A model generated the notes under the pieces. That model made no database searches and was not told where the DNA came from. It saw nothing but the letters and a program-made list of their open reading frames with translations. From the NCBI RefSeq assembly GCF_020283565.1, contig NC_060061.1, forward strand, positions 28,123,362-28,187,361: 64,000 bases of DNA, given 5' to 3'. Both the position numbers and the translations under genes were made by a program. This document shows, piece by piece, positions 5,440-61,124 of the stretch (position 1 is its first letter; each line of letters begins with the position of its first letter). The stretch is from Trifolium pratense (lineage: Eukaryota; Streptophyta; Magnoliopsida; Fabales; Fabaceae).

Positions 5440-8225
5440 ACATCAATGGCCTTGAATGCAAAATAGTATGATCTTAAATGTTGGTCTTTTATTGACAAAT
5501 ATTTGTTGTTTTGAATCGACTTTAATCTGCAGCCTCTCAAACATATTTATAACGTGAAATTCAAGTTATAATGACCCTTAATGAAATTACTGTTGAAACA
5601 TGATAAGTTGAGACGATGATGATGGTTCTTTCAAACTAATTAACAACACATATTCATGTTTCACCGACCCTTAATAGAATGACAATAGAAACATGAAAAT
5701 TTGAAATGATGGGTATGAATGCATAATTTCATATATGTGTTTACAGAGTTGAATAATATTATACTTCAATGACCCTTGATTGAAAAATATGATATTTGAA
5801 CTTGATGATTCTAAATTCGAGAAAACGGAAGAAGAATGATGGAATTATGCATGTGATATTGAATACAAAATTTGATATTTTGATTTATAAATTGAATTGA
5901 CGGTATCGTGACTTAGAAGGATGACTCGTATTACATTGAATTGACGTTATTGTGTCTTATATGAAATCGAATTGATGGTTTCGTGTCCTTAAATGATATT
6001 TGAATTGAATTGAAGGATAATGGTACTATGACCGAATGCTATTGAATACAAAATTTTAAAATGATGGCTCGGTTGAAGTTGATTTGACGGTATTGTGTGT
6101 CTCGGTTAAAATTGAATTGACGGTGTTATGTCATATAAGAAATGAGTTGATGGTATTGTGTGGCTTGTATGAAATTGAATTGACGGTATTGTGTAACAAA
6201 ATGACGGCTCATATGAAATTGAATTGACGGTTTTGTGTCCTTAAATGATAATTGAATTGAATTGACGGATAATGGTATTATGACCGAATGCTATTGGATA
6301 AAGAATTTTAAAATGATGGCTCGGTTGAGATTGGATTGACGGTGTTGTGTGACTTGTTTGAAATTGAATTGACGGTATTGTATGGCTTGTATGAAATTGA
6401 ATTGACGGTATCTTATAACAAAATGATAGCTCGTATGAAGTTTAATTGACGGTGTTGTGTCTTTAATTGATATTTGAATTGAATTGAAGGATAATGACAT
6501 AATACTATCTGATAGAAAATTGGATATTTGGATCTATAAATTGAATTGACGGTAACGTGACTTAAAATGATGGCTCGTATGAAATTAAATGGACTGTATT
6601 GTGCTATAAAATGACGGTCCGTATTACATTGAATTGATGGTAGGTATTGTGTTTTAAAATGATGACTTCTATGAACTTGTTTTCTTAAGTTAATTGTTTG
6701 TTTCTCTTTCCGGTTCAAAAGACGAATAAAAAAGCGATGAAAAGTTGAAGTAATGAAATGCAAAGCTTCTTAACGGGACATTCTATAAAGTTGCAGTTCT
6801 TTCACAAGGTATGTTTTGCAATTTTATCTGATACATATCTGAAATATTGATGACATATATGATACTTGAGCTTATATGGTTTAAATGATAAAAATTAATA
6901 TGATTATGCATCGATGACCTTGAATGCAAAATAGAATGATCTTGAATGTTTGTCTTTTATTGACAAATATTTGTTGTTTTGAATAGACTTTAATCTGCAG
7001 TCATCTCAGACATATTTATAACGTGAAATTCAAGTTATAATGACCGTTAATGAAATTACTGTTGAACATAAGTTGAGACGATGATGACGGTTCTTTAAAA
7101 CAAATTAATCACACATATTCATGTTTCACTGACCCTTAATAGAATGACAATAGAAATATGGAAATTTGAAATGATAGTTATGAATGCATAATTTCATATA
7201 TGTGTTTACAGAGCTGAATAATATTATACTTCAATGACCATTGATTGAAAAATATGATATTTGAACTTGATAGTTCTAAATTCGAGAAAACGGAAGAAGA
7301 ATGATGGAATTATGCATCTGATATTGAATAAAAAATTTGATATTTTGATTTATAAATTGAATTGATGGCATCGTGACTTAGAAGGATGACTCATATTACA
7401 TTGAAATGATGTTATTGTGTCTTATATGAAATCGAATTGACGGTTTCGTGTCCTTAAATGATATTTGAATTGAATTGAAGGATAATGGTACTATTACCGA
7501 ATGCTATTGAATACAAAATTTTAAAATGATGGTTCGGTCGAAATTGAATTGACGGTATTGGGTGACTCGATTAAAATTGAATTGACGGTATTATGTCATA
7601 TAAGAAATGAGTTGATGGTATTGTGTGGGCTTGTATGAAATTGAATTGACGGTATCGTGTAACAAAATGATGGTTCGGTCGAAATTGAATTGACGGTATT
7701 GGGTGACTCGATTAAAATTGAATTGACGGTATTATGTCATAGAAGGATGACTCATATTACATTGAAATGATGTTATTGTGTCTTATATGAAATCGAATTG
7801 ACGGTTTCGTGTCCTTAAATGATATTTGAATTGAATTGAAGGATAATGGTACTATTACCGAATGCTATTGAATACAAAATTTTAAAATGATGGTTCGGTC
7901 GAAATTGAATTGACGGTATTGGGTGACTCGATTAAAATTGAATTGACGGTATTATGTCATATAAGAAATGAGTTGATGGTATTGTGTGGGCTTGTATGAA
8001 ATTGAATTGACGGTATCGTGTAACAAAATGACGGCTCGTATGAAATTGAATTGACGGTTTTGTGTCCTTAAATGATATTTGAATTGAATTGATGGATTGG
8101 TATTATGACCGAATGCTATTGGATACAAAATTTTAAAATGATGGCTCGTTTGAGATTGAATTGACGGTGTTGTGTCTTTAATTGATATTTGAATTGACGG
8201 TAACGTGACTTAAAATGACGGCTTT
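5440..8225. repeat. degenerate minisatellite region with a 1,468-bp tandem duplication
   Basis: The phrase GAATTGACGGTATTGTG recurs dozens of times at roughly 35-40-bp spacing, mixed with AAAATGACGGCTCGTATG. On a larger scale the block starting near 5440 returns near 6908: the word gtcttttattgacaaat is at 5484 and 6952, and cttgaatgca at 5451 and 6919, both offset 1,468. No coding potential is seen; small open frames here are by-products of the repeat. Confidence 0.8.
7381..8102. repeat. 361-bp direct tandem duplication within the minisatellite
   Basis: The sequence from gaaggatgac at 7381 restarts at 7742 and stays near-identical through the second copy, with differences only near its end. 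It is a younger duplication than the 1,468-bp one. Confidence 0.75.
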
Positions 8226-21171: not shown

Positions 21172-21370
21172 AGCCTAGGGTTTTTGGAGGAGGGCGATGA
21201 TCATATCAAATTTGTTATTCAGAGTATCCACTTTGGAATCCAACTTATCCACCTTGCTTGCAAGAACTTGGTGTTCTGACCTCTGTTCTTCAATAGCTTG
21301 CTCCAAAACCCTTAGATGATCCACATCTGCTTCCATAGGGGCTTTTCCTTTATCAGAGGAAGATCCACCA
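21172..21370 (-). pseudogene. Sirevirus env-like gene, C-terminal part (cut off by LARD-A)
   Basis: Minus-strand frame encoding the C-terminal end, with a coiled-coil-like heptad stretch (VLEQAIEEQ, LASKVDKLDSKVDTL) and a stop at about 21172. It continues the frame of the larger piece at 29354-31829; the break is exactly at the target duplication cacca of the inserted LTR element. Function of this gene in Sireviruses is unproven; env-like is the usual label. Confidence 0.7.
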
Positions 21371-22146
21371 TGTAACGACCCAATTTTCATATTATTATTT
21401 TTATGTGTTAAAATATTTTATTTAACGTGGCATTTTAATTAAGTTAATAACTAGAGTTATTTATCGAGTACTTTAGTTATTAAGCGAATAGTGAGAGTTA
21501 TCGTGCGTTTGGGCCAAGCCAATTGGGCTTGAGGCCCAATGGGCCTTGAGTGTGTGAAGGTGGCGCCATATGGCCATGAGGGGGGAGAAGAGAAACATTT
21601 CATTTCATTTCTCATAAGTTTTGTGTTCTTGAGAGAAGAAAGGAGAGAGCTTGAGGAGCTAGGGCAAGAAGGAGAGCTAGGGATTCAAGAGCTTCGTCGT
21701 GTTTTCTTCGAATCCAGGTAAGAGAGTAGATTTCATATTCGTGGGTGACTCGAGGAAGGGGAGAAGATTTCTCCTCACCCGAACTTCCTCCACCCCATTT
21801 TCGTTTTAGTTGTGAATGGATTTTCTTAATGGAAATCGATTCTAAGGTTCATAACATGTTTAACATGCTCTTATCATGATGTATGAACGAATTTATTGGA
21901 TAAAAACGAGTTTATGAAAGATTAAACTCAAGAACTTTGTGTTCTTGAGTGTTTTGAGTAAAAGTGATAAATCCTTACTTTTTCGTAGTAAAAATGGTAG
22001 ATCGGTGAAATGAACCGTCCTTTTGTGTTTAGATATGCTTGTTATGCTTGAATATGAACTTATTTGGGGTTTATAACATGAAAAATGGGATTTTTGGGTG
22101 ATTTGAGATGAAAATCGCAAGGTTTGAACTGTCCTGACAGGAGGCC

Positions 22147-22262
22147 TTCGCTACGGGTTCGCTTAGCGAATAGTTCGCTGATTGCTCGCTACTGGTTCGC
22201 CACGAGCTCGAACTACCCTGACTTGGTTCGCTATCCATTCGCTACGGGTTCGCTTAGCGAAC
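22147..22262 (+). repeat. TTCGCT-rich module of the LARD-A LTR
   Basis: The word TTCGCT/CTCGCT recurs about eight times, with the palindromic hairpin TTCGC-TTA-GCGAA at 22158-22170 repeated near 22248. At the same LTR position LARD-B instead has a CGCC/GGCG module (about 45404-45555). Confidence 0.7.
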
Positions 22263-22440
22263 AGTACTAATTCAGCAATTTTTGTTGATGTTTTTAAGTG
22301 CAATTAGGCACTTGTAACATGGATTTGAGGTATCCTAGCATGCAATTGAGTGTTTGTAACCATGATTGATTGCTTGTTGATGAATTGTTGTTGATTATGA
22401 TTATGATTATGATGATGTTTATTTAAATGTCAAAGAAGTA

Positions 22441-22717
22441 TATTAAGGTGTTAATCAACTTAGTAAAGAAGTATATCGAATTATGTTATTCGATAAAGAC
22501 GGATATTAAGGTATTGGTTATCTTAATAAAGACGAACGTTGGATAGTGTTCCACGTTATTGTTAATGGGCTATATGCCATAATTGTTGATGAATATATTC
22601 ATGAGTTTTGAGTGCATGCATCATGAATATTTAGGGATATTGGCTTGTCCAATAAAGAAGGATATCGAACTATATTTGTTTGATAAAGAAGGATATCGGA
22701 GGTGAGATACTCTGATA
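22441..22717 (+). repeat. stem-loop chain in the LARD-A LTR
   Basis: Eight short stems in 277 bp: 22441-22447/22459-22465, 22474-22481/22488-22495, 22504-22510/22522-22528, 22535-22543/22550-22557 (one bulge), 22595-22604/22621-22630 (10 bp perfect), 22638-22643/22649-22654, 22663-22670/22678-22685 and 22694-22701/22710-22717. Most begin TAT and end ATA and are joined by AAGAAGGA or AAGACGGA. Inner stem sequences differ from unit to unit but remain paired (some G.T pairs). Confidence 0.8.
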
Positions 22718-22868
22718 AAGACGATGGTACCACATGCATTAGAGGTGTCTAGAGGACATAACATGAATGTGAAGCATTAGATTGCATTAGGGATTTTGTG
22801 TGCATTTTATGATAAATGATGTTTGACACATACTTGGTAAATGTTGATTGTTAATCCGTATGTGAGGA

Positions 22869-22996
22869 GCAGAGTCCGTCATGACTATAAAATGAACAAC
22901 GCAGAGTCCGTCATGACTATAAAATGAACAACGCAGAGTCCGTCATGACTATAAAATGAACAGCGCAGGGTCCGTCATGACCATAATCTGAACAAT
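22869..22996 (+). repeat. 4 x 32-bp tandem repeat in the LTR
   Basis: Unit starts GCAGAGTCCGTCATGAC; units at 22869, 22901, 22933 and a diverged one at 22965. The 3' LTR repeats this at 28649-28776. LARD-B LTRs have only two units (46131-46194), so copy number separates the subfamilies. Confidence 0.9.
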
Positions 22997-23573
22997 GTAT
23001 TTGTTAATGTTTTGGTATTGTCCGAGACGACGTGAAACTATATGTTTGGTGTATTTTGTGAATCATTGATTATGTGATAAATGAAGTATATGCATGATAT
23101 ATGAATATGCATGAATGATGGTGATGTATATGTATAATGTATGAATTATGCATGTTTTTTTATGAAGAAGTGTTTAAGTACCATTTACTTACACTTGTAT
23201 ATTTTGAGTATGTTATCTAACTCTCTTTTATGTGTTATGTGCTGGACCGTTGGGGGTCCAGATTTACAGGTTTTGTGGTATTCGATGTCGAGTCGTCGGT
23301 GAAGCTCTGCTCTGATTGTGACACGGGAAAGGGTTTTATATTGTATATAAAGTCTATTGTCTAGGTTGTTTTGTATAATCAATAAATACATTATTTGATT
23401 CAAAGATTTGTAAAAACACTATTTTTACTAATTAATTACATTAGTATTATTTTGATAGAGGAGTGTAATACTCGAACCGATATTCAATAAATTAAATGTG
23501 ATTTTCCGTTGCGTATTTTGAAAAAGATTTTACTAAAGGTAGAAATATATAAATAATGGGTTTGGGTGTTACA

Positions 23574-26500
23574 ATTGGTATCAGAGCCCCGTTGTCTTCG
23601 GACTGTGTGGGTTATGTGTCGATCAGAGCAGGTCTGTGCAGTCAGACCAAGTGAGTGTTGTGTGTCAGTCGTGTTTGTCTAACAATTTTGTTGTGTTTGT
23701 TTTGTGAAATCACTTATATTGTTCATTTAAGAACTATGAGTGGTGTGAATTGGATTAGTTGATCCATTCTTTTGTTGAGTAATTGTATGAGTGCTATACT
23801 TCTATGTTTATAATAGTTGTATATGCGTAGAGTTTAACCTTTTTGTAGTTTAAACTTGATGGATTGATGCTTATTGCTAATTGTTGATGATCCGGCATGA
23901 TGTAAAACTGCATGTGACGATCCGGCATGATATAAAACTGCATGTGACGATCCGGCATGATATAAAACTGCATGTGGTGATGACGATTTGAAATAATTTT
24001 AAAAGAAAAACTAATATTATTTCGTGAAGATTTTGGTGAAAATAAAGAGTTATTTTCTTTTGAATAAGTGAAAACTAAAATTTCAAAATGGTGAGAAGAT
24101 TAGGATATTAATGTGTCCTTGTATGTGTTTGTTATATGTTTGTTTATAACATGTGTTAGATGATTACTAGGGATTTGAATTGCTATGCGTTTTATGAGTA
24201 AAAACATGAAGATCTCATAATTCTATGTTGTGATTGTTGATGCATGATTCAAATTGTGCTTTCAAGTCTATAATGATGTTATATGCTTGATGTTTTGGAT
24301 TTTGTGGATTAGTGAGTCGAGAAAACGAGAGTTTAGTGAGCGTAAGTTCAAAACCGTAGCAGAGCACCCAGATTTTTGGATGTGCTCGCTAGGCGAAGAA
24401 TGAACCTCGCTGAGTCTCGCTAAGTCTCGCTAAGTCCTGTGAATGTTTGTGACTTGTCTCGCCGGGAGCTCGCTAGCTTTTGCTAAGCGAGGGAGCCAGA
24501 CAAGAAATTTATTTTGTTGACGTCTTGTTCTGAGTTGATTGAATGTGAGTATGAATTATTGCTATGCAATGTTCATTTTTCTTGTGTTGTTTTGATTTCC
24601 TAACTTTGAGAAGTGAGGGAAGTATAGGTTACTTGAATGCTTGCATGAATTTGTGTTAGTGTTTAGGTATCGTGGGTTAGGCTTTGTCCCTTGTATGCGA
24701 CATGCGTGTAAACGATGTCGATACTAGTTTCTTCTTTTGGGAAGAATATGTTTAGAGGCGATAGAACCGTTAGGTGTGAGCACCAGAAGTTCTAGTGGAA
24801 GAGTGTAGGTGGGTTTGAGATAAGTGGGGGAGAAGGTTATATCCCTCCGAGATGTTTCGAACGTGAGAAGATTGGATGAGTAGAGATGTTCTTGAAGCGG
24901 AATATTCAGGAAGTGGTGACGTTGTTCGAAGTGGAATGAATGGGAGCAACAAGTTGTGAGAAACTACTAGAAGAGAAGTTGTCGGACCAAGTGTTTCGTC
25001 GTGGGGCGTTAGTGAGATTGGTTAAGTGAGATGAAGAGTATTCGGAACGGTTGGAGATTGTGTCTTACACTAAAAGTTTGAAGGCATCATTTTTGTGGAC
25101 CAAGGTTGAAGTACCTGTTTGATCGGAAGGAGTCGAATATGAGGAAGAGGAAGTGATTATGATTCTTGAGAGGTGATGATTTTGAAGTAAGTTGTCATCC
25201 AAGTGGATCGGATGTTGTAGCGGATTCTTGAGTAAGAAGTTTTACGTGAGTCGTGCATTTGGTAGTAGGTTGAATTGGTTGAACAATTTGGAGTTCTAAG
25301 TCTAGTGTGTGAAGTAATTTTCATAAGAGATGTGAAGATTAGTGAACCGTTGGTGTTCATTAATCGATGAAGGGAAGTAGGCTTTAAAGTAGACGAGAAT
25401 GGAATTGAGAAATATCATAATAGGATTGGTATGTTTGTTGAATCGTTGGAAGTAAGGATTGTATGGGTAGTCGAGTTTATTCGAAGATGGAAGTAGGATA
25501 ACAATTCGAAAGATTTTGTGAGAGGCTTGTCGAAGAAAGAGTGATTGGATTTGGATAATGACCGGACAAATTGTGTCACATGTTGAACGAGAACGTAGAG
25601 TCTTAGAGGTTGAGACGAAGCTAAAAGAGAGGTATCATTTTTGAATGATGAAGAATAAGGAAGTTAGCCGTTGAGGAACGTGAGGAGAATGAGTATATGA
25701 GGTCATGTTGGAAGTGACTTGTGTTAGGTGAGAATTTGCGAAAAGGATTATCGCACATGTGAGTAGATGTCGTGTTTTAGCACATATAGTAAGGAGTTGA
25801 AGGCGATGTCTAAGGTAAGTGTCGGAGAGCATTTAGTAGTGCCCACAAGATAAGAGTGAGTAAGTATTTGCTAAGGAATTTGGATTCATGGAATGGAAGA
25901 GTCGGTAGAGACTAGTGTTGTTAGATGCATCGTGGATGTTGATGTGGTATGGTCACAATCGGTGACAATGAAGTAAAAGATTTTAAATTGTTTCATCATG
26001 GATGATGAAACGGTAGTGACTTGGTGCATAACTTAAAGTGTATTTGGACGAGAATTTTGGAAATTTTCTAGAGATGTCATATTGGGATTAGACAAGGAGT
26101 CATGAGTAAGAATACTAAGACAAAGGTTGATTAGAATTTAATGGATGGGATTAGATCGTATGACGAGTATTTGAAGCCTTGTGGATTTAATTCAAGAGTT
26201 TGATTTTGGTATCGAATGTACTAAGGGGGAGTTTAAAGATAGCTATCCAAAGAGAGATGATGATTGGTAAAGGTCGTAAGTGAATAAGAATTCGATGAGT
26301 GAATAAACGGAGAAGATTATGCTTGTTGCAATGCAAGATGACGAGGAACATCGATAGATGGATTATGGGCGAATTGAAGATGTCGTTTGGAATCAACGAG
26401 ATAGAGGTTATGATTGTTTGGAGAACCAATTTTAGGCGGTAGCCTAATTTTGAAGTAGCAAATTGCTAAGGGATTAAGGAGAAGTGGTATTGGAAAATGT

Positions 26501-27145
26501 TTGCGTTAAGGAATGCAAATATTGGTTGAGAGATTACTTGGGAACAGAGTAGTCGTATTGGATTCGACTCAATGTGAGAAAAGGAATTTGACAGTTAGAG
26601 ACGGTAGTTTTTAGCATGTGTCGAGGAAGATTTGAGAATGTGGGTCATCAAGTGATCGTTGGAATTGAATTATCGAGTGATATGTTTGGAATGAGATACG
26701 ATATGAATAGGTGATGTAACATGGTTAAGTGATCCATGAGGGAATCAAAGATTTATGAGAATTATGGAGTTGTGGAAGTATTCCACGGAAGTATCTTTCG
26801 GAGAGTTCGATTGGTTATACCTGTTTTGGGGCAGAGTTGTGTGTACCGTAGAATGTGAGTCTATGGATGTTTCGTGCGGAGTGGACGTTTTAGCGGTTTG
26901 ATAGGAATGGTTTATGTCGATATCATGATTGTTGACTATCTATCGACAAATTGAGGAACTGGCCGTCCTTGATCTCTTGTTGATAAATGGACAAAAATTG
27001 TGTTGGATGGGATAAACTAATTTTGTCAAACTTGGTAATGTGTAGCGTTTTGAGCGTTTCGTTGGAGGGTCGGATACAGGAGTTATCCGGAGTTGCTTTA
27101 GTCGCGTAATTTTCGAGGGCGAAAATCTTTTAAGTGGGGGAGAGT
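23574..27145 (+). mobile_element. LARD-A interior, non-coding
   Basis: No open frame of note on the plus strand. It holds the PBS TGGTATCAGAGC (23576-23587), a 3 x 30-bp repeat (unit GATCCGGCATGATATAAAAC, 23889-23978; two units in LARD-B), a hairpin-prone CTCGCT region at 24385-24492, and the purine tract AGTGGGGGAGAG (27133-27144). Short minus-strand frames (for example 24770-24952) are shared with LARD-B but show no codon-like constraint by eye. Confidence 0.8.
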
Positions 27146-29353
27146 TGTAACGACCCAATTTTCATATTATTATTTTTATGTGTTAAAATATTTTATTTAA
27201 CGTGGCATTTTAATTAAGTTAATAACTAGAGTTATTTATCGAGTACTTTAGTTATTAAGCGAATAGTGAGAGTTATCGTGCGTTTGGGCCAAGCCAATTG
27301 GGCTTGAGGCCCAATGGGCCTTGAGTGTGTGAAGGTGGCGCCATATGGCCATGAGGGGGGGAGAAGAGAAACATTTCATTTCATTTCTCATAAGTTTTGT
27401 GTTCTTGAGAGAAGAAAGGAGAGAGCTTGAGGAGCTAGGGCAAGAAGGAGAGCTAGGGATTCAAGAGCTTCGTCGTGTTTTCTTCGAATCCAGGTAAGAG
27501 AGTAGATTTCATATTCGTGGGTGACTCAAGGAAGGGGAGAATGTCGATTTCTCCTCACCCGAACTTCCTCCACCCCATTTTCGTTTTAGTTGTGAATGGA
27601 TTTTCTTAATGGAAATCGATTCTAAGGTTCATAACATGTTTAACATGCTCTTATCATGATGTATGAACGAATTTATTGGATAAAAACGAGTTTATGAAAG
27701 ATTAAACTCAAGAACTTTGTGTTCTTGAGTGTTTTGAGTAAAAGTGATAAATCCTTACTTTTTCGTAGTAAAAATGGTAGATCGGTGAAATGAACCGTCC
27801 TTTTGTGTTTAGATATGCTTGTTATGCTTGAATATGAACTTATTTGGGGTTTATAACATGAAAAATGGGATTTTTGGGTGATTTGAGATGAAAATCGCAA
27901 GGTTTGAACTGTCCTGACAGGAGGCCTTCGCTACGGGTTCGCTTAGCGAATAGTTCGCTGATTGCTCGCTACTGGTTCGCCACGAGCTCGAACTACCCTG
28001 ACTTGGTTCGCTATCCATTCGCTACGGGTTCGCTTAGCGAACAGTACTAATTCAGCAATTTTTGTTGATGTTTTTAAGTGCAATTAGGCACTTGTAACAT
28101 GGATTTGAGGTATCCTAGCATGCAATTGAGTGTTTGTAACCATGATTGATTGCTTGTTGATGAATTGTTGTTGATTATGATTATGATTATGATGATGTTT
28201 ATTTAAATGTCAAAGAAGTATATTAAGGTGTTAATCAACTTAATAAAGAAGTATATCGAATTATGTTATTCGATAAAGACGGATATTAAGGTATTGGTTA
28301 TCTTAATAAAGACGAACGTTGGATAGTGTTCCACGTTATTGTTAATGGGCTATATGCCATAATTGTTGATGAATATATTCATGAGTTTTGAGTGCATGCA
28401 TCATGAATATTTAGGGATATTGGCTTGTCCAATAAAGAAGGATATCGAACTATATTTGTTTGATAAAGAAGGATATCGGAGGTGAGATACTCTGATAAAG
28501 ACGATGGTACCACATGCATTAGAGGTGTCTAGAGGACATAACATGAATGTGAAGCATTAGATTGCATTAGGGATTTTGTGTGCATTTTATGATAAATGAT
28601 GTTTGACACATACTTGGTAAATGTTGATTGTTAATCCGTATGTGAGGAGCAGAGTCCGTCATGACTATAAAATGAACAACGCAGAGTCCGTCATGACTAT
28701 AAAATGAACAACGCAGAGTCCGTCATGACTATAAAATGAACAGCGCAGGGTCCGTCATGACCATAATCTGAACAATGTATTTGTTAATGTTTTGGTATTG
28801 TCCGAGACGACGTGAAACTATATGTTTGGTGTATTTTGTGAATCATTGATTATGTGATAAATGAAGTATATGCATGATATATGAATATGCATGAATGATG
28901 GTGATGTATATGTATAATGTATGAATTATGCATGTTTTTTTATGAAGAAGTGTTTAAGTACCATTTACTTACACTTGTATATTTTGAGTATGTTATCTAA
29001 CTCTCTTTTATGTGTTATGTGCTGGACCGTTGGGGGTCCAGATTTACAGGTTTTGTGGTATTCGATGTCGAGTCGTCGGTGAAGCTCTGCTCTGATTGTG
29101 ACACGGGAAAGGGTTTTATATTGTATATAAAGTCTATTGTCTAGGTTGTTTTGTATAATCAATAAATACATTATTTGATTCAAAGATTTGTAAAAACACT
29201 ATTTTTACTAATTAATTACATTAGTATTATTTTGATAGAGGAGTGTAATACTCGAACCGATATTCAATAAATTAAATGTGATTTTCCGTTGCGTATTTTG
29301 AAAAAGATTTTACTAAAGGTAGAAATATATAAATAATGGGTTTGGGTGTTACA
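27146..29353 (+). repeat. LARD-A 3' LTR
   Basis: 2,208 bp, same as the 5' LTR apart from one extra G near 27360, a 4-bp difference near 27543 and isolated substitutions (for example 28240s, which restores the first stem of the chain to a perfect pair). Confidence 0.92.
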
Positions 29354-31829
29354 CACCATCCTCTGGATAATCAATCAAAAGAACTTGTTCTTGATCTAGC
29401 AATGCAGCCTCTTGAGCAATCCTCTCAGTCTCGATCCTCTGATCCTCTAAACATTTGAACAAATTGGAGTCCACCCAGCAGTTCTTGAACACATGAAATA
29501 GCATATCATCAACAGCTTTCCTTGCAGATACAGCTGCAGCCCTAGAGGTCTCAGCTTCTTCATGGTTAAACATGGTCAATCTCTTCAGACTTGCTCTAGT
29601 AAAAGCTTCCCTCAGCAGACTGACAACCTCCAAGTCCCTTGTACCAATCTCAGCTTTGATGTCCTCACCAACCATATCCAGCGTTTCACATATCTTGGCC
29701 TTGATAGCAGAAACCTCAACATCCACATCAGACGGACACACCAAGAACCTGTTCTTAAGTGCAGACAACTTCAAAAGATCATCATAAAGCTGATTGGATA
29801 GACTTCCAAAGGGGTCAAATGTTGTGGGATAGGTATAAGGAATTGTGTAAGTCTTGGGGGATTCAGGAGCAGAGTTGGTATTATCAACAACATCCACTTC
29901 TGAGGGACAAGGAGCACAAGTGTGAACACGTTCAGGAGATACATGTTCAGCACTTGGGTTTGGGTTAGGTTCAGAATTTTGTTCAGAGTTTGTGGGTTCA
30001 GTAGTTGGTTCAGGAGATTGGATAGGAGAGTTTTGCTTAGGTTGTTTAGTGGGAGAGTGTATGGGTTCAGGAGATTTTTTTGGTTGTGGATCAGATGTTT
30101 ATTTGGCAGTTGTTTCTTGTTGTGGTTGAGTTTGTGGTGATTTTGGTTTAACAGGAGATTTTGGTTCGGTAGTTTCGTGAGAGAAAGGATGATTGTTCAG
30201 AGTATCAGGGCTAAGATGTTTCTCTAGTTCAACAATAGGATCTTCAGAAAGAACTTGTTTGTCCTTCTGCTGAGACTTATCAGAGGAGGTAAGTTTTGAA
30301 AGATTTTTCTTACCTTCTTTGATCAGCTCATCAGTTGAACAACTTTGTTCCTCTGAGTCTGAAATATTAATGGGGTCAGGGTGAATGGTTCTAAGTGGTT
30401 TTGTGAAACCTAATCCAATTTCAGCTTCATTAAAAGAGATCTTAGGAGTCTTGCCTTTAGATACAGGAACTTGTTTCTTCCGAAGGCTATCAGCAAGAGT
30501 TTCCTCATCAGAGTGTGTCTCTTCTGAGTCAGCTTCATCATCATCCAGCTTTAGTTTCCTCTTAGGAGCTCTAGAGGATTCCTCAGCAACCTTTTCAGCA
30601 GGTGCTTCATGCTTATGCTTTGTCCTTTGTTCAGCCACAGCTTGTTCCACCTTGATCTTCTTCTGAGCCAGAAGATCTGGCTGAACTTGTTCCTCTTGAG
30701 TTTCAGCCTTTCTTTTGGACTTCCTTTTTCTAGGGTTGTACATGCTGAAAGTTGGCTCTTTTGGTACCATATCCCTAGAGACCACATAACCTTCTCCCTT
30801 AAGTGCTTTTAAATAGTTCTGAATAACTTCTTCACAATCCAATTCAGAGACTATTGGATACCCATCCACATAAAATGGATCACCTTTGCGAACTTGAAAG
30901 TCTTGTGTAGGTTGAACCACTTTAGTGTTGATGAGATGCATTTTGGTTAAGAAGTTAGCAGACAGAACTTCTGGTGTAATCTGATTCTCAAAAAGTTCTG
31001 GATGAAACTTCTTAAGCTGCTTTACTATTCTCCCTTGAAAAAGTAGGTCAGACAACAATCTAGGATGAACAATGGTTGTTCTCCTCTGAGACTTGCTTAA
31101 GAAAATAGCTTCACATACCCGTTCAAAGAGGTAATCTCCCAGATTAACCTTTCTTTGAGTCAGAAGAAAATAGATCAGATGACGATGAGGCCAAGAGATT
31201 GTATCAGTACCACCTAATCTTGGACAGATAGATGATATGATAATCTTAAACAAAACCCTGCACTCATCAGTCATTCCCTTGACTTTACCCTTCAGTTTTA
31301 GATCAGTAAACATCCTGTGCAGAAGATCTTCTCTGAATCTTGTATCCTTTTCAAAGCTGTCCAAAATCATACCAGAGTTTGTTAACCCAAGTAGAGCGTT
31401 GAAGTGAACCTTTGAGAAAGTGAGATTTATGCCGGAGACATTTGACCTAATTTGAGTACTAGTAAACTCAAGAAGACCCATCTCCTTCCTAGATTTTCCT
31501 TTCAGTCTTGGATTCCTTTCAATAGCTATAGAAGTTCTTCTTGCTTTGCTTCGTACTTGGTGAAGACCTTAACTTTCATCTAGAAATGCTTAAGGAGATC
31601 TGGATAGATTTGGACCGTTCAACATCTCGAAATACCTGTTCCAACCTTGAGAAGCAAAGTACGGTTCCACATCATATCCATTAACTTTCAAGCTATTGAA
31701 GTCGACCATCTTCTCAGGCAAAAGAGTTAGCAAAGATTCTTGGAATTTCATCTCGTTCGCAATAAATTCCATGTTCTTGAAGATAAATGGAGGAATAGTG
31801 ATTGGATTTGTTGAAGTTGAAGCAGACAT
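29354..31829 (-). pseudogene. Sirevirus env-like gene, N-terminal and central part
   Basis: One minus-strand frame runs from an ATG at 31829 to the LARD-A insertion and contains three in-frame stops (about 31590, 31560 and 30100), so it is dead. The N-terminal third (FIFKNMEFIANEM, YFEMLNG) and the region after 31481 (GLLEFTSTQIRSNVSGINLT) match the env-like proteins of legume Sireviruses. The middle is charged with nuclear-localisation-like KRK clusters (NPRKRKSKRK, APKRKLKLDDD) and a SUMO-interaction-like DPINISDSEE. A Pro/Ser/Glu-rich repeat follows, then a coiled coil. It lies directly downstream of the pol end (32290-32555), the usual order. No membrane segment is obvious; real function in the family is not established. 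Confidence 0.75.
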
Positions 31830-35932: not shown

Positions 35933-37846
35933 TGATCGTGCGCGACAACGCAATGGTACTGCAAGTATACAGTCGTGTCGTGTAGTTTTAAAAGATATCG
36001 AACCCAAAGGACCAATAATCGACCTACCGTATTCTAGTGTTGCTTTGTAAATCTAAGGCTAATGATTTAAAGGGTTATGATTAATTGAATAACTAAAATA
36101 AGAGAGATAAATATTTTTTAGATTTTTAATATGTAAATAAAATATTGCTAGGACGTGCTATTAGTTGCTTCAGAGGGTTCAATACTTAGTTCGCGCTAGA
36201 CAAAATTACTACCACATCTAATTGTCGTATTTTAATAAAATCGATGCTCCAGGCGAAAGCCGTTCTCACTTCCAGCTCTCACAACTCTCATCATGAAATT
36301 AATAAAATACTTTACAAAGTAGTTGCATTACTTCTAGATTTTAGTGGTGTAAACAATTAAATTTTCGAAACTATATTGTTTTAAAAATACAATTCAGATA
36401 GTATTATAAATTATAAAGGTGGTGCTTAACTCTCGTCCTCACATCCGCTAATAAAATACTCTTTGAAAAACAATATAATTTAATTAACTCTAATCCCAAC
36501 TCTCGTTGCGAATTAGATTTAATGTTCAGTTTTTACTATCTAGTAGAAATCTCACGCTCTCGCTCTATTGATTTTTACTTTAATTAATTCTCACTCTCGT
36601 GACGAATTATAATCAACGCTTAATTAAAAACTGCTTAAGAAAATAAAACCGTTGTCAGTTTTCAAGAATTATATTTAATTTAAAAACACTAATCTCAGCT
36701 CTCGCAAATCTTGACTAGCGTTATACTTAGATAAAATAAATGCTCAGCTCTCACGCGCTCACTTACCTATATAAGTACCTTTGAAAATCAATATAAAACT
36801 CATTAATCCTAAATAGCTCTCGCGGACTTTAGAACTAACGGTCAGTTTTAACTATCCGACCCTAAACCTCAACTCTCGTCAATGTTGGTTTATTGCCTTT
36901 AAAATAATCCTCACTCTCGTGACGAATTATTTGATAACGTATTTATTTAAAACTGGTGGTTGAAAACTATTAAGCGCGAATTAACTACCGAACCCCAATC
37001 AGCTACTAACTACACATCCTAGCAACGCTAAACTTAGCTAGACATAACTAAAAATAAAGACATAAAAATAAAATAAGCAAATAAATAAATAGACATAAAA
37101 ATAAAAGCAGAAATTAAAAGCATAAAATAAAAGCAATAAAATAAAGATAAGAAATAAATAAGACCATAAAATAAAATAAGAACCTGAATTAAAAAGAAAT
37201 CTCGAGTACGGATTCCGACAGCGTAACGGTAGGAAAATAAAAAAAACTTATTTTATTCTCAACGGAGAATAAAATAATACTAAACTCTCGACTTTAGAGA
37301 AGAAAACCTTGTGGTACTAAGCCTAGTTTTCAATTCTCCAGTCAAGTGTTATCAGTTGGTTTTGTAAAGTGGAGAAAAGGGGCCTATTTATACTAATTTC
37401 ACAAGAGACAAAACATCAATTTGGCCGATGTGGGACTTAAGGAAAAATAGCGCGTGACCGTTTGATGAAACGTGTGGCCATGATGAAAAGGGAGTGGCGA
37501 GAGCCACTTTGGTGCATGTGGCGGTTGCCACTTTTGGTTGGCTGGCGAGCAGCACTTGTTTCCTTGTGGCAGGCGCCACTTTGGGCTTCTTGGTGACCGT
37601 CAAGTGTGTTTGGTGGGCTGCACATGTGTGGCCCAATTGGCTGCACATGTGTGGTCCTTTTTGTCCATTTTTGCTCCTTTTCGGTCCATTTTCGCTCCTT
37701 TCTTCAACTCGTACACTTTTTATCTGTTTATTTAAAATACGAGAAATAAGTAACGATTCATAATATAAAACTTCGAAATCGAAATAAAAATAATTAAAAT
37801 ATAATAGTAAATTAACTAAATAAATAGCATATTTTTAGGCGTATCA
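35933..37846 (-). repeat. solo LTR of an Athila-type (Ty3/gypsy) element
   Basis: 1,914 bp; on the minus strand TGATACGCC...CACGATCA. Perfect target duplication actgt at 35928-35932 and 37847-37851. No interior, hence a solo LTR left by LTR-LTR recombination. Related to the LTR at 39559-41258 but in opposite orientation and about 200 bp longer. Carries the CTCTCG (minus: CGAGAG) hairpin series at about 36180-36960 and GTGGC..GCCAC hairpins at 37493-37579. Confidence 0.92.
37493..37579 (-). repeat. GTGGC/GCCAC hairpin cluster of the solo LTR
   Basis: Three hairpins within 87 bp share the stem but not the loop: AGTGGC/GCCACT with loop GAGA (37493-37508), GTGGC/GCCAC with loop GGTT (37518-37531) and the same stem with loop AGGC (37566-37579). 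The sister LTR has two of this kind at 39873-39941. Confidence 0.75.
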
Positions 37847-39558: not shown

Positions 39559-39872
39559 TGATACACCTAAAAAGATGCTATTTATTTAGTTAATTTACTA
39601 TTATATTTTATATGTTTTTATTTCGATTCCGAAGTTTTACTATATAAATAGTTACTTATTTCTCATATTTTAAATAAACAGATAAAAAGTGTACGAGTTG
39701 AAGAAATGAGCGAAAACGGACCGAAAAGGAGCAAAAGAGGACAAAAAGGCCACACATGTGCAGCCAATTGGGCCACACATGTGCAGCCCATCAAGTCACG
39801 CAGGCCAGCCCACAAGCAGCAAGGCAATGCCACTCACCAGCCTGCCAAGGATGGCGCTCACCAGCTGGCCCA

Positions 39873-39941
39873 AAGTGGCGGTCGCCACTTCATTAATCCT
39901 GGTCGTCCACTTAAAGTCAAATCGTGTGGCTTTCGCCACAC
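39873..39941 (+). repeat. GTGGC/GCCAC hairpins of the Athila-C LTR
   Basis: AAGTGGCG/CGCCACTT with a 2-nt centre (39873-39890) and GTGTGGC/GCCACAC with loop TTTC (39924-39941). Confidence 0.75.
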
Positions 39942-40392
39942 AGCTTAAGTCCCACATCGCCTGTTTCAGTATTTTTGTCCCCTAGCTACTACTATAAATA
40001 TGTGTCCTTTCTCCACTCGTAAAACACACACCAACTGGTAACAGTTGAGGAAGAGAATTGAGACTAAGATTTAATTCTTGGTTTCTTCTCTTAGTTTAAT
40101 ATTTTTATTTCCTGCTGTTGCGCTGTCGGTGTCCGTACTCAAGATTTCTTTTATTAATTCAGGTTCTTTATTTTATTTTCTTTTCTTTATTTTTATGTTT
40201 ATTTTATTTATTTTATTTTTCTGTTTTTATTTAATGTCTTTATTTTTATTTATTTATTTTATGTCTTTAGTTTTAGTTATGTCTAGCTAAATTTAGCGTT
40301 GCTAGGATGTGTAGTTAGTAGCTAATAAGGGTTCGGTAGTTAATTCGTGCTTAATAGTTTTCAACCACCAGTTTTAAATAAATACGTTTTCA

Positions 40393-40838
40393 AACAATTT
40401 GTCACGAGAGTGAGGATTGTTTTAAAGGCAATAAACCAACATTGACGAGAGTTGAGGTTTAGGGTCGGATAGTTAAAACTGACCGTTAGTTCTAAAGTCC
40501 GCGAGAGCAATTTAGGATTGATGAGTTTTATATTGATTTTCAAAGGTACTTATATAGGTAAGTGAGCGCGTGAGAGCAGAGCATTTATTTTATCTAAGTA
40601 TAACGCTAGTTAAGATTTGCGAGAGCTGAGATTAGTGTTTTTAAATCAAATATAATTCTTGAAAACTGGCGACTGTTTTATTTTCTTAAGCAGTTTTTAA
40701 TTAAACGTTGATTATAATTCATCACGAGAGTGAGAATTAATTAAAGTAAAAATCAATAGAGCGAGAGCGTGAGATTTCTACTAGATAGTAAAAACTGAAC
40801 ATTAACTCTGATTCGCAACGAGAGTTGGGATTAGAGTT
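40393..40838 (+). repeat. GAGA-loop stem-loop series of the Athila-C LTR
   Basis: Clear members: AACAAT..CAC-GAGA-GTG..ATTGTT (40393-40421), AATTC.TCAC-GAGA-GTGA.GAATT (40716-40738) and AACTCTGAT..CAAC-GAGA-GTTG..ATTAGAGTT (40804-40838). The loop is always GAGA and stems differ. In the solo LTR the first stem reads AATAAT/ATTATT, a compensated change. Confidence 0.75.
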
Positions 40839-41264
40839 AATTAAATTATATTGCTTTTCAAAGAGTATTTTATTAGCGGATGCGAGAACGAGAGTTAAGC
40901 ATCACCTTTATAATTTATAATACTAGTCAAGATTTGTGAGAGCTGAGATTAGTGTTTTTAAAACAATATAGTTTCAAAGATTTTACAGTTTGTCTAGCAC
41001 GAATTAAGCATTGAACCCTCTGAAGCAACTAATAGCACGTCCTAGCAATATTTTATTTACATATTAAAAATCTAAAAAATATTTATTTCTCTTATTTTAA
41101 TTATTCAATTAATCAAAACCCTTTAAATAATTAGCCTTAGATTTACAAAGCGACACTAGATAACGGTAGGTCGATTATTGGTCCTTTGGGTTCGATAATC
41201 TTTTAAAACTACACGACACGACTGTATACTTGCAGTTAAGTTGATAAACACGCGATCAAGTTTT

Positions 41265-44653: not shown

Positions 44654-45403
44654 TGTAACGACCCAATTTTCATATTATTATTTTTATGTGTTAAAATATT
44701 TTATTTAACGTGGAATTTTAATTAAGTTAATAACTAGAGTTATTTATCGAGTACTTTAGTTATTAAGCGAGTAGAGAAAGAGTTAACGTGTTATTGGGCC
44801 AAGCCAATTGGGCTTGAGGCCCAATGGGCCTTGTGTGTGTGAGGGGCGCCCATATGGCCTAGGGGAAGGGAGAAACATTTCATTTTTTCTCATGTTCTTG
44901 TGAGAAAGAGAGGAAGAAGAGGAGAGCTTGGGAGCTAGAGCAAAGGGAGAGCTAGGGATTCGAGATCTTCGTCGTGTTTTCTTCGAATCCAGGTAAGAGA
45001 GTAGATTTCATATTCGTGGGTGATCCGAGGAAGGGGAGAATGTCGATTTCTCCTCACCCGAACTTCCTCCACCCCATTTTCGTTTTAGTTGTGAATGGAT
45101 TTTCTTAATGGAAATCGATTCCAAGGTTCATAACATGTTTAACATGCTCTTATCATGATGTATGAACGAATTTAATGGTTAAAAACGAAGTTTATAGATG
45201 ATTAAACTCAAGAACTTTGTGTTCTTGAGAGTTTTGAGTAAAAGTGTTAAATCTCTACTTTTTCGTAGTAAAAATGGTAGATCGGTGAAATGAACCGTCC
45301 TTTTGTGTTTAGATATGCTTGTTATGCTTGAATATAAACTTATTTGGGGTTTATAACATGAAAAATGGGATTTTTGGGCGTTTTTGTGTAGAAAACGCAT
45401 GTT

Positions 45404-45555
45404 TTTTCCGCCTCAGGCACATAAATTTCCGCCTGAAACGGAAGAGCAGTGAGCAGCCAACCTTTCAGATGTTTCTGCGCCTCAAACGTAAACTTTTGCG
45501 CCTCAGGCGAAAACTTCCGCCTCAAACGTAAATATTTCCGCCCCAGGCGGAAATG
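45404..45555 (+). repeat. CGCC/GGCG hairpin module of the LARD-B LTR
   Basis: Reiterated CCGCCTCAGGC/CGCCTCAAACG words. Best stems: ATTTCCGCC/GGCGGAAAT with a 3-nt loop (45534-45554, 9 bp perfect) and TTTTGCGCC/GGCGAAAA (45494-45513, one bulge). Confidence 0.75.
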
Positions 45556-45701
45556 CTGCAGATTTCACCAATTTTTCATCTGCTATCTTCCTTTGCATGT
45601 ATTTTCAATCAGTGTCTTATTCTTACATGATTGTTGATGCTTGTTGATGCTTGTTGATGCTTATAACGATTGTTAATCATGTATGAAGTATAAATGAAGT
45701 A

Positions 45702-45970
45702 TATTAAGGTGTTAATCAACTTAATAAAGAAGGATATTAGAATTATGTTATTCTAATAAAGACGGATATTAAGGTATTGATTATCTTAATAAAGACGGAC
45801 GTTGGATAGTGTTCCACGTTATTGTTGACGGGCTATACGCCAAAATTGTTGATGTATATATTCATGAGTTTTGAGTGCATGCATCATGAATATTTAGGGA
45901 TATTGGCTTGTCCAATAAAGAAGGATATCAAACTATAATTGTTTGATAAAGACGGATATCGGAGGTGAAA
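45702..45970 (+). repeat. stem-loop chain in the LARD-B LTR
   Basis: Same chain as LARD-A with changed stems: 45702-45708/45720-45726, 45735-45743/45750-45758 (TATTAGAAT/ATTCTAATA, 9 bp) and 45926-45933/45941-45948 (TATCAAAC/GTTTGATA, perfect), linked by AAGAAGGA/AAGACGGA. Confidence 0.8.
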
Positions 45971-46770
45971 TACTCTGATAAAGACGATGGTACCACATGC
46001 ATTAGAGGTGTCTAGAGGACATAACATGAATGTGAAGCATTAGATTGCATTAGGGATTATGTGTGCATTTATAATAAATGATGTTTGACACATACTTGGT
46101 AAATGTTGATTGTTAATTCGTATGTGAGGAGCAGAGTCCGTCATGACTATAAAATGAACAACGCAGGGTCCGTCATGACCATAATCTGAACAATGTATTT
46201 GTTGATGTTTTGGTATTGTCCGAGACGACGTGAAACTATATGTTTGGTGTATTTTGTGGATGTTTGATTAGGTGATAAATGAAGTATATGCATGATATAT
46301 GAATATGCATGAATGATGGTGATGTATATGTATAATGTATGATTATGCATGTTTTTATGAAGAAGTGTTTAAGTACCATTTACTTACACTTGTATATTTT
46401 GAGTATGTTATCTAACTCTCTTTTATGTGTTATGTGCTGGATCGTTGGGGGTCCAGATTTACAGGTTTTGTGGTATTCGATGTCGAGTCGTCGGTGAAGC
46501 TCCGCTCTGATTGTGACACGGGAAAAAGGGGTTTTATATGTATATAGAGTCTCCTTATCTAGGTTGTTTTGTATAGCTAATAAATACATTAGTTGATTTA
46601 ACATTTGTATAAACAAGTATTTTTACTAATTAACTACATTAGTATTATTTTGGTAGAGGAGTGTAATACTCGAACCGATATAAATAAATTAAATGTGATT
46701 TTCCGTTGCGTATTTTGAAAAAGATTTTACTAAAAGTATAAATATATAAATAATGGGTTTGGGTGTTACA

Positions 46771-49700: not shown

Positions 49701-50189
49701 TTGAGAATGTTGGTCAACGAGTGATATGTTGGAATAAGATTCGAATATGAATAAGTGGTGTAGCACAGTTAAGTGATTCATGAGGGAATCAAAGATTTAT
49801 GAGAATTATGGAGTTGTGGAAGTATTCCACGGAAGTATCTTTCGGAGAGTCCGATTGGTTGTACCTATTTTGGGGGTAACGTTGTGAGGTCGTAGAATGT
49901 GAGTCTATGGATGTTTCGTGCGAAGTTGACGTTTTAGCGGTTTGATAAGACTGTTTTGTGCCGATATCATGATTGTTGAATATTTATCGACAAATTGAGG
50001 AACTGGCCGTCCTTGATCTCTTGTTGATAAATAGACAAAAATTGTGTTGGATGGGATAAATTAATTTTGTCAAACTTGGTAATGTGCAGTGTTTTGAACG
50101 TTTCATTGGAGGGTCGGATACAGGAGTTATCCGGAGTTGTTTTAGTAGCGTAATTTTCGAGGGCGAAAATCCTTTAAGTAGGGGAGAGT
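46771..50189 (+). mobile_element. LARD-B interior 1
   Basis: PBS TGGTATCAGAGC at 46773-46784, a 2 x 30-bp GATCCGGCATGAT repeat at 47096-47155, no coding sequence, purine tract AAGTAGGGGAGAG before 50190. 3,419 bp. Confidence 0.85.
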
Positions 50190-58309: not shown

Positions 58310-58312
58310 ATT

Positions 58313-59400: not shown

Positions 59401-61124
59401 ATTTCTCCTCACCCGAACTTCCTCCACCCCATTTTCGTTTTAGTTGTGAATGGATTTTCTTAATGGAAATCGATTCCAAGGTTCATAACATGTTTAACAT
59501 GCTCTTATCATGATGTATGAACGAATTTAATGGTTAAAAACGAAGTTTATAGATGATTAAACTCAAGAACTTTGTGTTCTTGAGAGTTTTGAGTAAAAGT
59601 GTTAAATCTCTACTTTTTCGTAGTAAAAATGGTAGATCGGTGAAATGAACCGTCCTTTTGTGTTTAGATATGCTTGTTATGCTTGAATATAAACTTATTT
59701 GGGGTTTATAACATGAAAAATGGGATTTTTGGGCGTTTTTGTGTAGAAAACGCATGTTTTTCCGCCTCAGGCACATAAATTTCCGCCTGAAACGGAAGAG
59801 CAGTGAGCAGCCAACCTTTCAGATGTTTCTGCGCCTCAAACGTAAACTTTTGCGCCTCAGGCGAAAACTTCCGCCTCAAACGTAAATATTTCCGCCCCAG
59901 GCGGAAATGCTGCAGATTTCACCAATTTTTCATCTGCTATCTTCCTTTGCATGTATTTTCAATCAGTGTCTTATTCTTACATGATTGTTGATGCTTGTTG
60001 ATGCTTGTTGATGCTTATAACGATTGTTAATCATGTATGAAGTATAAATGAAGTATATTAAGGTGTTAATCAACTTAATAAAGAAGGATATTAGAATTAT
60101 GTTATTCTAATAAAGACGAATATTAAGGTATTGATTATCTTAATAAAGACGGACGTTGGATAGTGTTCCACGTTATTGTTGACGGGCTATACGCCAAAAT
60201 TGTTGATGTATATATTCATGAGTTTTGAGTGCATGCATCATGAATATTTAGGGATATTGGCTTGTCCAATAAAGAAGGATATCGAACTATAATTGTTTGA
60301 TAAAGACGGATATCGGAGGTGAAATACTCTGATAAAGACGATGGTACCACATGCATTAGAGGTGTCTAGAGGACATAACATGAATGTGAAGCATTAGATT
60401 GCATTAGGGATTATGTGTGCATTTATAATAAATGATGTTTGACACATACTTGGTAAATGTTGATTGTTAATTCGTATGTGAGGAGCAGAGTCCGTCATGA
60501 CTATAAAATGAACAACGCAGGGTCCGTCATGACCATAATCTGAACAATGTATTTGTTGATGTTTTGGTATTGTCCGAGACGACGTGAAACTATATGTTTG
60601 GTGTATTTTGTGGATGTTTGATTAGGTGATAAATGAAGTATATGCATGATATATGAATATGCATGAATGATGGTGATGTATATGTATAATGTATGATTAT
60701 GCATGTTTTTATGAAGAAGTGTTTAAGTACCATTTACTTACACTTGTATATTTTGAGTATGTTATCTAACTCTCTTTTATGTGTTATGTGCTGGATCGTT
60801 GGGGGTCCAGATTTACAGGTTTTGTGGTATTCGATGTCGAGTCGTCGGTGAAGCTCCGCTCTGATTGTGACACGGGAAAAAGGGGTTTTATATGTATATA
60901 GAGTCTCCTTATCTAGGTTGTTTTGTATAGCTAATAAATACATTAGTTGATTTAACATTTGTATAAACAAGTATTTTTACTAATTAACTACATTAGTATT
61001 ATTTTGGTAGAGGAGTGTAATACTCGAACCGATATAAATAAATTAAATGTGATTTTCCGTTGCGTATTTTGAAAAAGATTTTACTAAAAGTATAAATATA
61101 TAAATAATGGGTTTGGGTGTTACA
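59401..61124 (+). repeat. LARD-B LTR 2, right part
   Basis: Resumes the LTR after Athila-2 (first five bases are the duplicated atttc) and ends GTGTTACA at 61124. Sum of both parts without the duplicate is 2,116 bp against 2,117 bp for LTR 1 (one T fewer in a T run near 59757). Confidence 0.92.

What the first reader, a model, noticed from the sequence alone, without database searches (positions are those of the whole stretch)
22441..22717. Chain of stem-loops with constant linker and changing stems in a non-autonomous LTR
Eight short hairpins follow each other in 277 bp of the LARD LTR. Each is framed by TAT...ATA and joined by AAGA(A/C)GGA, often creating AATAAA at the boundary. The inner stem sequence differs between units (TATTAAG, TATCGAAT, TATTGG, TATCGGAG and others), yet the partner arm changes with it. 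In LARD-B the second unit reads TATTAGAAT/ATTCTAATA instead of TATCGAAT/ATTCGATA, with both arms changed together, and the seventh becomes a perfect TATCAAAC/GTTTGATA. Covariation within and between copies argues for a structure under constraint (RNA dimerisation, packaging, 3'-end control) or for a copy mechanism that writes inverted arms. I know of no description of such an array.
Basis: partly seen in the sequence, partly recalled or inferred. Interest (0 to 1): 0.9.

Follow-up and report, generated by a model that had tools for sequence, protein, structure and literature searches.

The report
Hairpin chain in plant retrotransposon LTRs
A family of plant jumping genes carries, in its long terminal repeats, a chain of about eight small hairpins whose paired arms change together while the spacers between them stay nearly constant, which points to a working RNA (or single-strand DNA) structure, perhaps a signal that helps the element's full-length RNA get exported or packaged.

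Summary
The eight hairpins at 22441-22717 are real and far above chance. They lie in the 2.2-kb LTRs of a non-autonomous Tekay/Del-like LTR element (21371-29353). The block directly behind the chain recurs at 2,488 places in this 413.6-Mb genome, and a gag-pol-coding copy also has the chain. True covariation exists on a wider scale. At stem pair 4, 4,096 of 4,136 counted hairpins are C-G or T-A; random re-pairing of arms never reached the observed pairing (0 of 20,000); between LTR families most changed pairs I tallied changed on both sides. In one CpG-balanced context single-arm hits were symmetric (16 and 12) with 0 doubles, so rewriting of both arms is not frequent. This fits selection on the active lineage. 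The chain sits between a conserved 5' splice-site-like motif and a conserved branch-point/3' splice-site-like block. I propose a cis-acting structure of the unspliced genomic RNA (export, dimerisation or packaging). Function, transcript ends, splicing and strand are not shown.

The parts
21371..23573 (+). 5' LTR of element A (TGTAACGACCC ... GGTGTTACA, 2203 bp); 5-bp direct flank CACCA at 21366-21370
   Evidence: repeats at 27146-29353
27146..29353 (+). 3' LTR of element A; flank CACCA at 29354-29358
21715..21720 (+). candidate 5' splice site CAG|GTA (AG|GTRAGAG or AG|GTATGAG in most copies looked at, all LTR families)
   Evidence: use not shown
21752..21790 (+). possible second covarying helix just after the candidate 5' splice site (GAGGAAG/CTTCCTC here, GAGAAAG/CTTTCTC in L027, AAGAGAG/CTCTCTC in D31)
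   Evidence: in family D the lowest-energy fold pairs the 3' arm elsewhere
22441..22465 (+). chain unit 1 (TATTAAG/CTTAGTA; CTTAATA in the 3' LTR)
22474..22495 (+). chain unit 2b (TATCGAAT/ATTCGATA); neighbouring unit 2a of other copies is absent here
22504..22528 (+). chain unit 3 (TATTAAGGTA/TATCTTAATA)
22535..22557 (+). chain unit 4 (AACGT..GGA/TCC..ACGTT; AATGT/ACATT in group C)
22595..22630 (+). chain unit 5 (10-bp stem; loop holds the self-complementary TGCATGCA)
22638..22654 (+). chain unit 6 (TATTGG/CCAATA; TATCAG/CTGATA in family D)
22663..22685 (+). chain unit 7 (TATCGAAC/GTTTGATA; TATCGGAT/ATCCGATA in 4 of 6 group C arrays, TATCAGAT/ATCCGATA in 2)
22694..22717 (+). chain unit 8 (TATCGGAG/CTCTGATA; TATTAGAG/CTCTAATA in group C)
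22723..22742 (+). conserved block GATGGTACCACATGCATTAG directly after the chain, used as family anchor
   Evidence: 2488 places genome-wide at up to 2 mismatches, reversed control 0
23217..23269 (+). candidate branch point CTAAC, hairpin CTGGACC/GGTCCAG and 3' splice site ACAG|G; similar block in family D
   Evidence: use not shown
23381..23386 (+). AATAAA, candidate poly(A) signal of the LTR
   Evidence: position only
23576..23587 (+). primer binding site string TGGTATCAGAGC (initiator tRNA-Met, label recalled)
27131..27145 (+). polypurine tract before the 3' LTR
28212..28522 (+). chain and anchor in the 3' LTR of element A
45693..46003 (+). chain in element B, first copy (unit 2a present, 2b absent)
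60047..60357 (+). chain in element B, second copy

Best explanation
The chain is a cis-acting nucleic-acid structure, most likely RNA, in the transcribed part of the LTR of a Tekay/Del-like retrotransposon group, shared by coding and non-coding members. Constant purine-rich linkers (AAAGA[AC]G) are held single-stranded between hairpins whose sequence is free but whose pairing is kept by selection while the lineage is active. Shown from sequence: the chain, its copies, covariation, single-arm decay without double changes in one context, and conserved splice-site-like motifs around it. Inferred: transcription runs from the first third of the LTR to near its end, so that the chain lies in a 1.55-kb leader intron (21718-23269) and is present only in unspliced RNA; the repeated linkers and the unit-5 loop palindrome then serve export, dimerisation or packaging of the full-length RNA, which the non-coding elements need as cis signals when they use the Gag of coding relatives. 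The step to a specific function is the weakest; I give selection on a structure about 0.8 and this function about 0.35.
For: Arms covary across distinct stems: 22 arm combinations 81 of 88 canonical at pairs 4-7, shuffle mean 67.9, 0 of 20,000; 13 distinct 5' arms 48 of 52 against 39.0, 0 of 20,000. Pair 4, genome-wide, units with the GGATAT form: C-G 1800, T-A 2296, T.G 35, C.A 5. Groups AB (30 arrays) and C (6) differ by both-sided changes at 22537/22555, 22668/22680, 22670/22678 and 22697/22714. In family D adjacent units TATCAGACTTGTCTGATA and TATTGGACTTGTCCAATA differ by four changes, all in two pairs. Stem columns vary less than loops with AB and C pooled (32 of 130 against 29 of 65). 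A gag-PR-RT-RH-IN coding copy has the chain (L042). Chain end plus anchor is one of few LTR blocks that BLAST aligns between A and the three D LTRs, with the branch-point/3' splice-site block. AG|GT of the 5' splice-site-like motif is kept in 42 of 46 LTR stretches whose start was found (hand count). ATGCAT between units 4 and 6 in 40 of 40 arrays. No retrocopy of the predicted spliced junctions for two families.
Against: No transcript data: start, end and splicing are predicted only, and absent spliced junctions fit 'never spliced' equally. Folding does not single out the chain: other LTR windows score as low, and the minus strand folds as well or better. Strand is unresolved: the genome-wide T.G:C.A excess (35:5) is partly copies of one form (8 of the 14 strings shown) and vanishes in a CpG-balanced context (16:12, p 0.57). 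Two A.C mismatches spread. Within group C alone stems are not less variable than loops (12 of 130 against 5 of 65). Copies are related, so counts of copies are not independent events. The 3' flank is only moderately more variable than the chain. The helix after the 5' splice-site-like motif is not in the lowest-energy fold of family D.
Confidence: 0.5

Rival explanations
1. Mutational origin: template switching in DNA replication or reverse transcription copies one arm onto the other and unit exchange spreads stems, without any function of the structure.
For: Template switching can create and mend hairpins (PMC8794818, abstract read). Unit 7 of A and of 4 of 6 C arrays differ in several stem pairs while the loop TATATTT is the same; linker types GAAG/GACG change in several units of one array together.
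Against: In CpG-balanced units 2b/7C there are 16 T.G, 12 C.A and 0 double T-A; whether all 28 are dead, independent copies is not known. Among 21 same-element or tandem LTR comparisons, 8 stem changes: 5 keep pairing, 3 break it, 0 double (classified by hand). G.U intermediates exist at several pairs. A rare process, or one confined to reverse transcription, is not excluded.
Confidence: 0.17
2. DNA-level element of the U3 promoter: a tandem enhancer of palindromic protein sites, or a cruciform.
For: Tandem repeats in plant LTR promoters are known (recalled). The constant linker AAAGA[AC]GGATAT could be a repeated protein site. DNA folding is as exceptional as RNA folding (z -5.2).
Against: A double-stranded site needs no pairing between flanks, yet the flanks covary while their letters are free. 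The chain lies about 1.1 kb into the LTR, downstream of the splice-site-like motif and purine-rich stretch. A cruciform would fit the covariation.
Confidence: 0.15
3. Splicing control: purine-rich linkers bind splicing factors and the hairpins keep them exposed, tuning retention of the LTR intron.
For: Position between conserved splice-site-like motifs; linker AAAGAAGGA is purine-rich like exonic enhancers (recalled).
Against: Splicing is not shown; no spliced retrocopy found.
Confidence: 0.15
4. 3'-end control through AATAAA at each hairpin boundary.
For: 131 of 209 counted unit ends read AATAAA.
Against: 77 of 209 read GATAAA, set by stem pair 4; the family D arrays are mostly GATAAA. A separate AATAAA lies near the LTR end at 23381.
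Confidence: 0.05

Closest known systems
Ty1 5' leader (TIPIRT) with pseudoknot and kissing hairpins for dimerisation and packaging (PMC5454406, abstract read)
   Same: structured cis RNA of an LTR retrotransposon, supported by compensatory changes
   Different: there tested by mutation and probing; a pseudoknot with two kissing hairpins, no repeated unit with constant linker in the abstract; here sequence evidence only
RNA transport elements of mouse IAP and musD (passage in review PMC12786077)
   Same: structured RNA of an LTR element that acts on the full-length transcript
   Different: the review reports export through NXF1/NXT1 for them; it says LTR-element RNA export has not been studied directly in plants
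Parasitic BARE2 packaged in BARE1 particles (PMC3735527, passages read)
   Same: non-autonomous plant LTR element said to keep dimerisation and packaging signals and to use a partner's Gag
   Different: BARE elements (copia type, recalled); 'stem-loop' does not occur in that paper's main text
Mtr58, Tekay clade of Medicago truncatula (PMC2533021, passages read)
   Same: 8.8 kb, LTR 2.1 kb, PBS matches tRNA-Met, over 600 copies: fits the coding relatives by description
   Different: sequence identity not tested; 'hairpin' does not occur in that paper's main text

Membership tests
Non-autonomous Tekay/Del-like LTR element (LARD) | paired LTRs with TG..CA ends and target site duplication | tested here: met
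   21371-23573 and 27146-29353, 99.7% identical, CACCA flanks
Non-autonomous Tekay/Del-like LTR element (LARD) | PBS and polypurine tract, no coding capacity inside | tested here: met
   PBS 23576, PPT 27135; 3 open stretches of 90 aa or more in 23000-27600, the longest 110 aa, all on the minus strand
Non-autonomous Tekay/Del-like LTR element (LARD) | coding relative with the same kind of LTR | tested here: met
   L042: gag, CCHC, protease, RT, RNase H, integrase in two open stretches in different frames; its LTR aligns to A in several blocks
Tekay/Del clade of chromoviruses | RT phylogeny in the Tekay clade | not tested
   label rests on LTR ends, PBS and PPT strings (recalled) and the likeness to the description of Mtr58
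Tekay/Del clade of chromoviruses | chromodomain at the end of integrase | tested here: inconclusive
   no Pfam chromodomain in the two open stretches nor in the overlapping 80-aa piece at the 3' end; frames change
Packaging/dimerisation or export element of genomic RNA | conserved pairing with compensatory change | tested here: met
Packaging/dimerisation or export element of genomic RNA | present in genomic RNA, absent from spliced RNA | tested here: inconclusive
   splice-site-like motifs only; junction searches 0
Packaging/dimerisation or export element of genomic RNA | needed for export, dimerisation or packaging; bound by Gag or export factors | not testable with these tools
   needs experiments
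Product of template-switch mutation | both arms rewritten in one step also in copies not under selection | tested here: inconclusive
   0 double against 28 single in one context and 0 of 8; a rare or reverse-transcription-only process would be missed
Described RNA family | match in Rfam 15 | tested here: not met
   0 matches in the window at gathering scores

The most novel reading that the evidence does not exclude
An intron inside the LTR of a plant gypsy-type element carries a beads-on-a-string RNA: a repeated single-stranded linker as the protein-binding letter, separated by hairpins of free sequence. Only RNA that escapes splicing keeps it, and this marks the genome copy for export or packaging, for the coding element and its parasites alike. 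It would be a plant counterpart of psi or a transport element, built as a repeat array.
Probability: 0.28. Interest if true: 0.82.

Novelty: new variant of a known kind. Interest (0 to 1): 0.62.

Why it matters
[quoted passage not shown] Here one compact, repeated, covarying element is shared by a coding element and non-coding relatives, with its flank at 2,488 places, which gives a concrete target and natural stem variants for testing how non-autonomous elements get mobilised. It also offers a test ground for selection against template switching as the source of compensatory change, because older and recent copies can be compared.

Tried and rejected
Rejected: the LARD-A/LARD-B second-unit comparison as covariation (absence of a unit). 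Rejected as proof of a plus-strand RNA: G.U excess over A.C (17 against 3 pair cells among 44 distinct hairpins; 35 against 5 genome-wide), because a CpG-balanced context gives 16 against 12. Rejected as evidence: sliding-window folding scores, which are equally low elsewhere in the LTR. A Fisher test on broken pairs (0 of 13 against 3 of 8) is not used: it left out the two A.C mismatches that spread. With them, double changes are 9 of 15 between families against 0 of 8 after insertion (p 0.007; hand tally; pair 7 of unit 8 in family D, which I read as a bulge, is left out). Nothing found: Rfam; a 19-base anchor in viral contigs and in prokaryote genomes; spliced junctions. The A-type junction through the alternative acceptor CCAG did not complete. 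Literature searches in whose listings I saw no description of such a chain: (0 papers). The enod40 structured-RNA paper (PMC10578108, passages) names other repeats; PMC7730604 (passages) reports splicing of sunflower elements but no expressed Tekay.

Full report
What is there. The window lies at G000:C3:28123362-28187361 of a 413.6-Mb genome in 90 contigs; the species is not stated and I did not establish it. The finding sits in the 5' LTR (21371-23573) of an LTR element that ends at 29353, has CACCA on both flanks, a TGGTATCAGAGC primer site at 23576, a polypurine tract before 27146 and no open stretch above 110 aa inside. The LTR ends and primer site are of the Tekay/Del type (recalled); Mtr58 of Medicago truncatula is described as Tekay with 2.1-kb LTRs and a tRNA-Met primer site (PMC2533021, passages).

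The chain. Eight hairpins occupy 22441-22717. Six are TAT...ATA units joined by linkers that begin AAAGA[AC]G; unit 4 and the 10-bp unit 5 are of another make. The motif ATAAAGAMGNATAT occurs 15 times in the window, only in the four copies of the chain, against 0.01 expected. Genome-wide, a linker-hairpin-linker pattern has 2413 places and the 20-base anchor behind the chain 2488 places (up to 2 mismatches); reversed controls gave 0. That each anchor place has a whole chain was not tested.

What the copies show. From 58 loci and the window I collected 77 anchor hits, 40 distinct arrays, parsed. The sample is biased: the best matches to the window's own chain (8 loci and 20 fetched regions) plus 30 loci from the first part of one chromosome. 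Chains in L009, L012, L021, L023, L033 and others have two units between units 1 and 3. LARD-A has one of them and LARD-B the other. The 'perfect' seventh unit is one difference between two LARD-B copies in a stretch that is 99.9% identical over 4.6 kb.

Covariation is nevertheless real. Across 44 distinct TAT-type hairpins (241 instances), re-pairing the arms at random never reached the observed pairing in 20,000 trials, whether I used 22 arm combinations (81 of 88 canonical, mean 67.9) or one hairpin for each of 13 distinct 5' arms (48 of 52, mean 39.0). Genome-wide counts at stem pair 4, in units with the GGATAT form of the linker, were C-G 1800, T-A 2296, T.G 35 and C.A 5, so 4096 of 4136 are Watson-Crick. 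These copies are related and not independent. Between groups AB (30 arrays) and C (6 arrays), four homologous pairs changed on both sides; four coincidences out of five changes per side in 55 pairs have chance 7e-5 (the five-and-five count for A against the commonest C form is mine by hand, unit 5 left out because it is shifted in the alignment). Family D (LTR pairs about 3.0-3.1 kb apart, L029-L032 and L054:2070) has the same linkers and order with quite different stems that are paired but for one bulge in unit 8.

Selection or copying? In the 21 same-element or tandem comparisons, 12 differences fall in the chain: 8 in stems, 2 in loops, 2 in linkers. I dropped 31 differences of L040 upstream of the chain, where one copy has other DNA, and one of L050 outside the chain. 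Of the 8 stem changes 5 keep pairing, 3 break it, none is double. In a context where both arms have a CpG, 16 places carry the T.G hit, 12 the C.A hit and 0 both (the unmutated C-G count in this context did not complete, and I do not know that all 28 are independent dead copies). So I see decay of single arms and no frequent rewriting of both. Between families I count 9 double changes among 15 changed pairs (4 double and 2 one-sided between A and C, 5 double and 2 one-sided between A and D in units 6-8, and the 2 A.C mismatches; the bulged pair of unit 8 in D left out; hand tally; Fisher p 0.007 against 0 of 8). Older comparisons have had more time for doubles, so this is support, not proof. 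Stems vary less than loops when AB and C are pooled (32 of 130 columns against 29 of 65), but within C alone they do not (12 of 130 against 5 of 65).

Results against a simple RNA reading. Two A.C mismatches spread: unit 8 in 9 of 36 and unit 7 in 2 of 36 arrays. The minus strand folds as well as the plus strand and the chain is not the only low-energy part of the LTR. The G.U excess that would point to the plus strand does not survive the CpG-balanced test (binomial p 0.57). The strand is open.

Where the chain lies. BLAST aligns A to the three family D LTRs only in short blocks, not all the same in each: a TTCGCTA-rich stretch (D29, D54), one near the chain start (D31), chain end plus anchor (all three), LTR 1639-1691 and LTR 1835-1901 (all three), besides matches between different units. 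The last holds CTAAC, a CTGGACC/GGTCCAG hairpin (G.U in D) and ACAG|G or TCAG|G. In the first third A, B, C, F42 and D each have AG|GTRAGAG or AG|GTATGAG at LTR 332-372. In one search, of 46 LTR stretches whose start was found, 42 keep AG|GT by my count; L003 and L047 have lost the GT and L026 and L027 showed no motif; 5 more rows had no LTR start. Behind it 12 of 14 LTRs show a 7-bp helix by pattern, GAGGAAG/CTTCCTC in ten, GAGAAAG/CTTTCTC in L027 and AAGAGAG/CTCTCTC (first pair A.C) in D31; D29 and D54 did not fit the pattern, and the lowest-energy fold of the D LTRs pairs the 3' arm with bases next to the splice-site-like motif instead. So this second helix is suggestive only. The layout is that of a 1.55-kb leader intron with structured RNA inside. 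No retrocopy of the two predicted spliced junctions exists at up to 3 mismatches, which fits either no splicing or no copying of spliced RNA.

Mechanism. A coding copy, L042 (gag with CCHC knuckle, protease, RT, RNase H, integrase), carries the chain, and so does the non-coding element of the window. What such parasites keep in common with a coding partner is expected to be cis signals; BARE2 is said to keep dimerisation and packaging signals and is packaged in BARE1 particles (PMC3735527, passages). Unit 5 shows a self-complementary TGCATGCA in its loop in element A, and ATGCAT lies between units 4 and 6 in 40 of 40 arrays, as a kissing loop would need; in groups C and D it is at least partly in predicted stems. 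I therefore favour a role of the unspliced RNA in export, dimerisation or packaging. All steps beyond structure and conservation are inference.

Verdict. A real, strongly covarying array in an LTR family, with a wrong first proof and an open function. In the listings of seven literature searches I saw no description of it; one library of open papers was searched.

Noticed in passing
window 50587-59420: A different element with 1.1-kb direct terminal repeats (50587-51695 and 58313-59420, 99.2%) appears inserted in an LTR of element B.
   Followed up: partly
window 44654-64000: Element B continues after its second LTR into another internal region (45043-49646 and 59398-64000, 99.9%), a tandem or recombinant arrangement sharing an LTR.
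   Followed up: no
window 22869-22995 and 23885-23976: 32-bp tandem repeats in the LTR and 30-bp repeats just inside the element look alike (CCGTCATGACTATAAAATG and CCGGCATGATATAAAACTG); copy number differs between elements A and B.
   Followed up: no
window 22147-22265: Short repeats around TTCGCTTAGCGAA in the LTR; this stretch aligns to two of three family D LTRs.
   Followed up: no
L042:488-9288 and L008: Coding copy in a tandem of at least three LTRs at 7358-bp spacing; the first two are identical over the 1.1 kb compared.
   Followed up: partly
window 5441-8202: Complex tandem array with units around AAATTGAATTGACGGTATT, including a 361-bp higher-order repeat.
   Followed up: no
window 36351-37846 and 39559-40991: Inverted pair of 1.5-kb sequences, 79% identical.
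   Followed up: no
G000:C1:16951084, 16957645, 22493562, 22500201, 44008926, 44015495: Anchor hits at about 6.6-kb spacing that may point to a further element family with the chain's flank; DNA could not be fetched.
   Followed up: no
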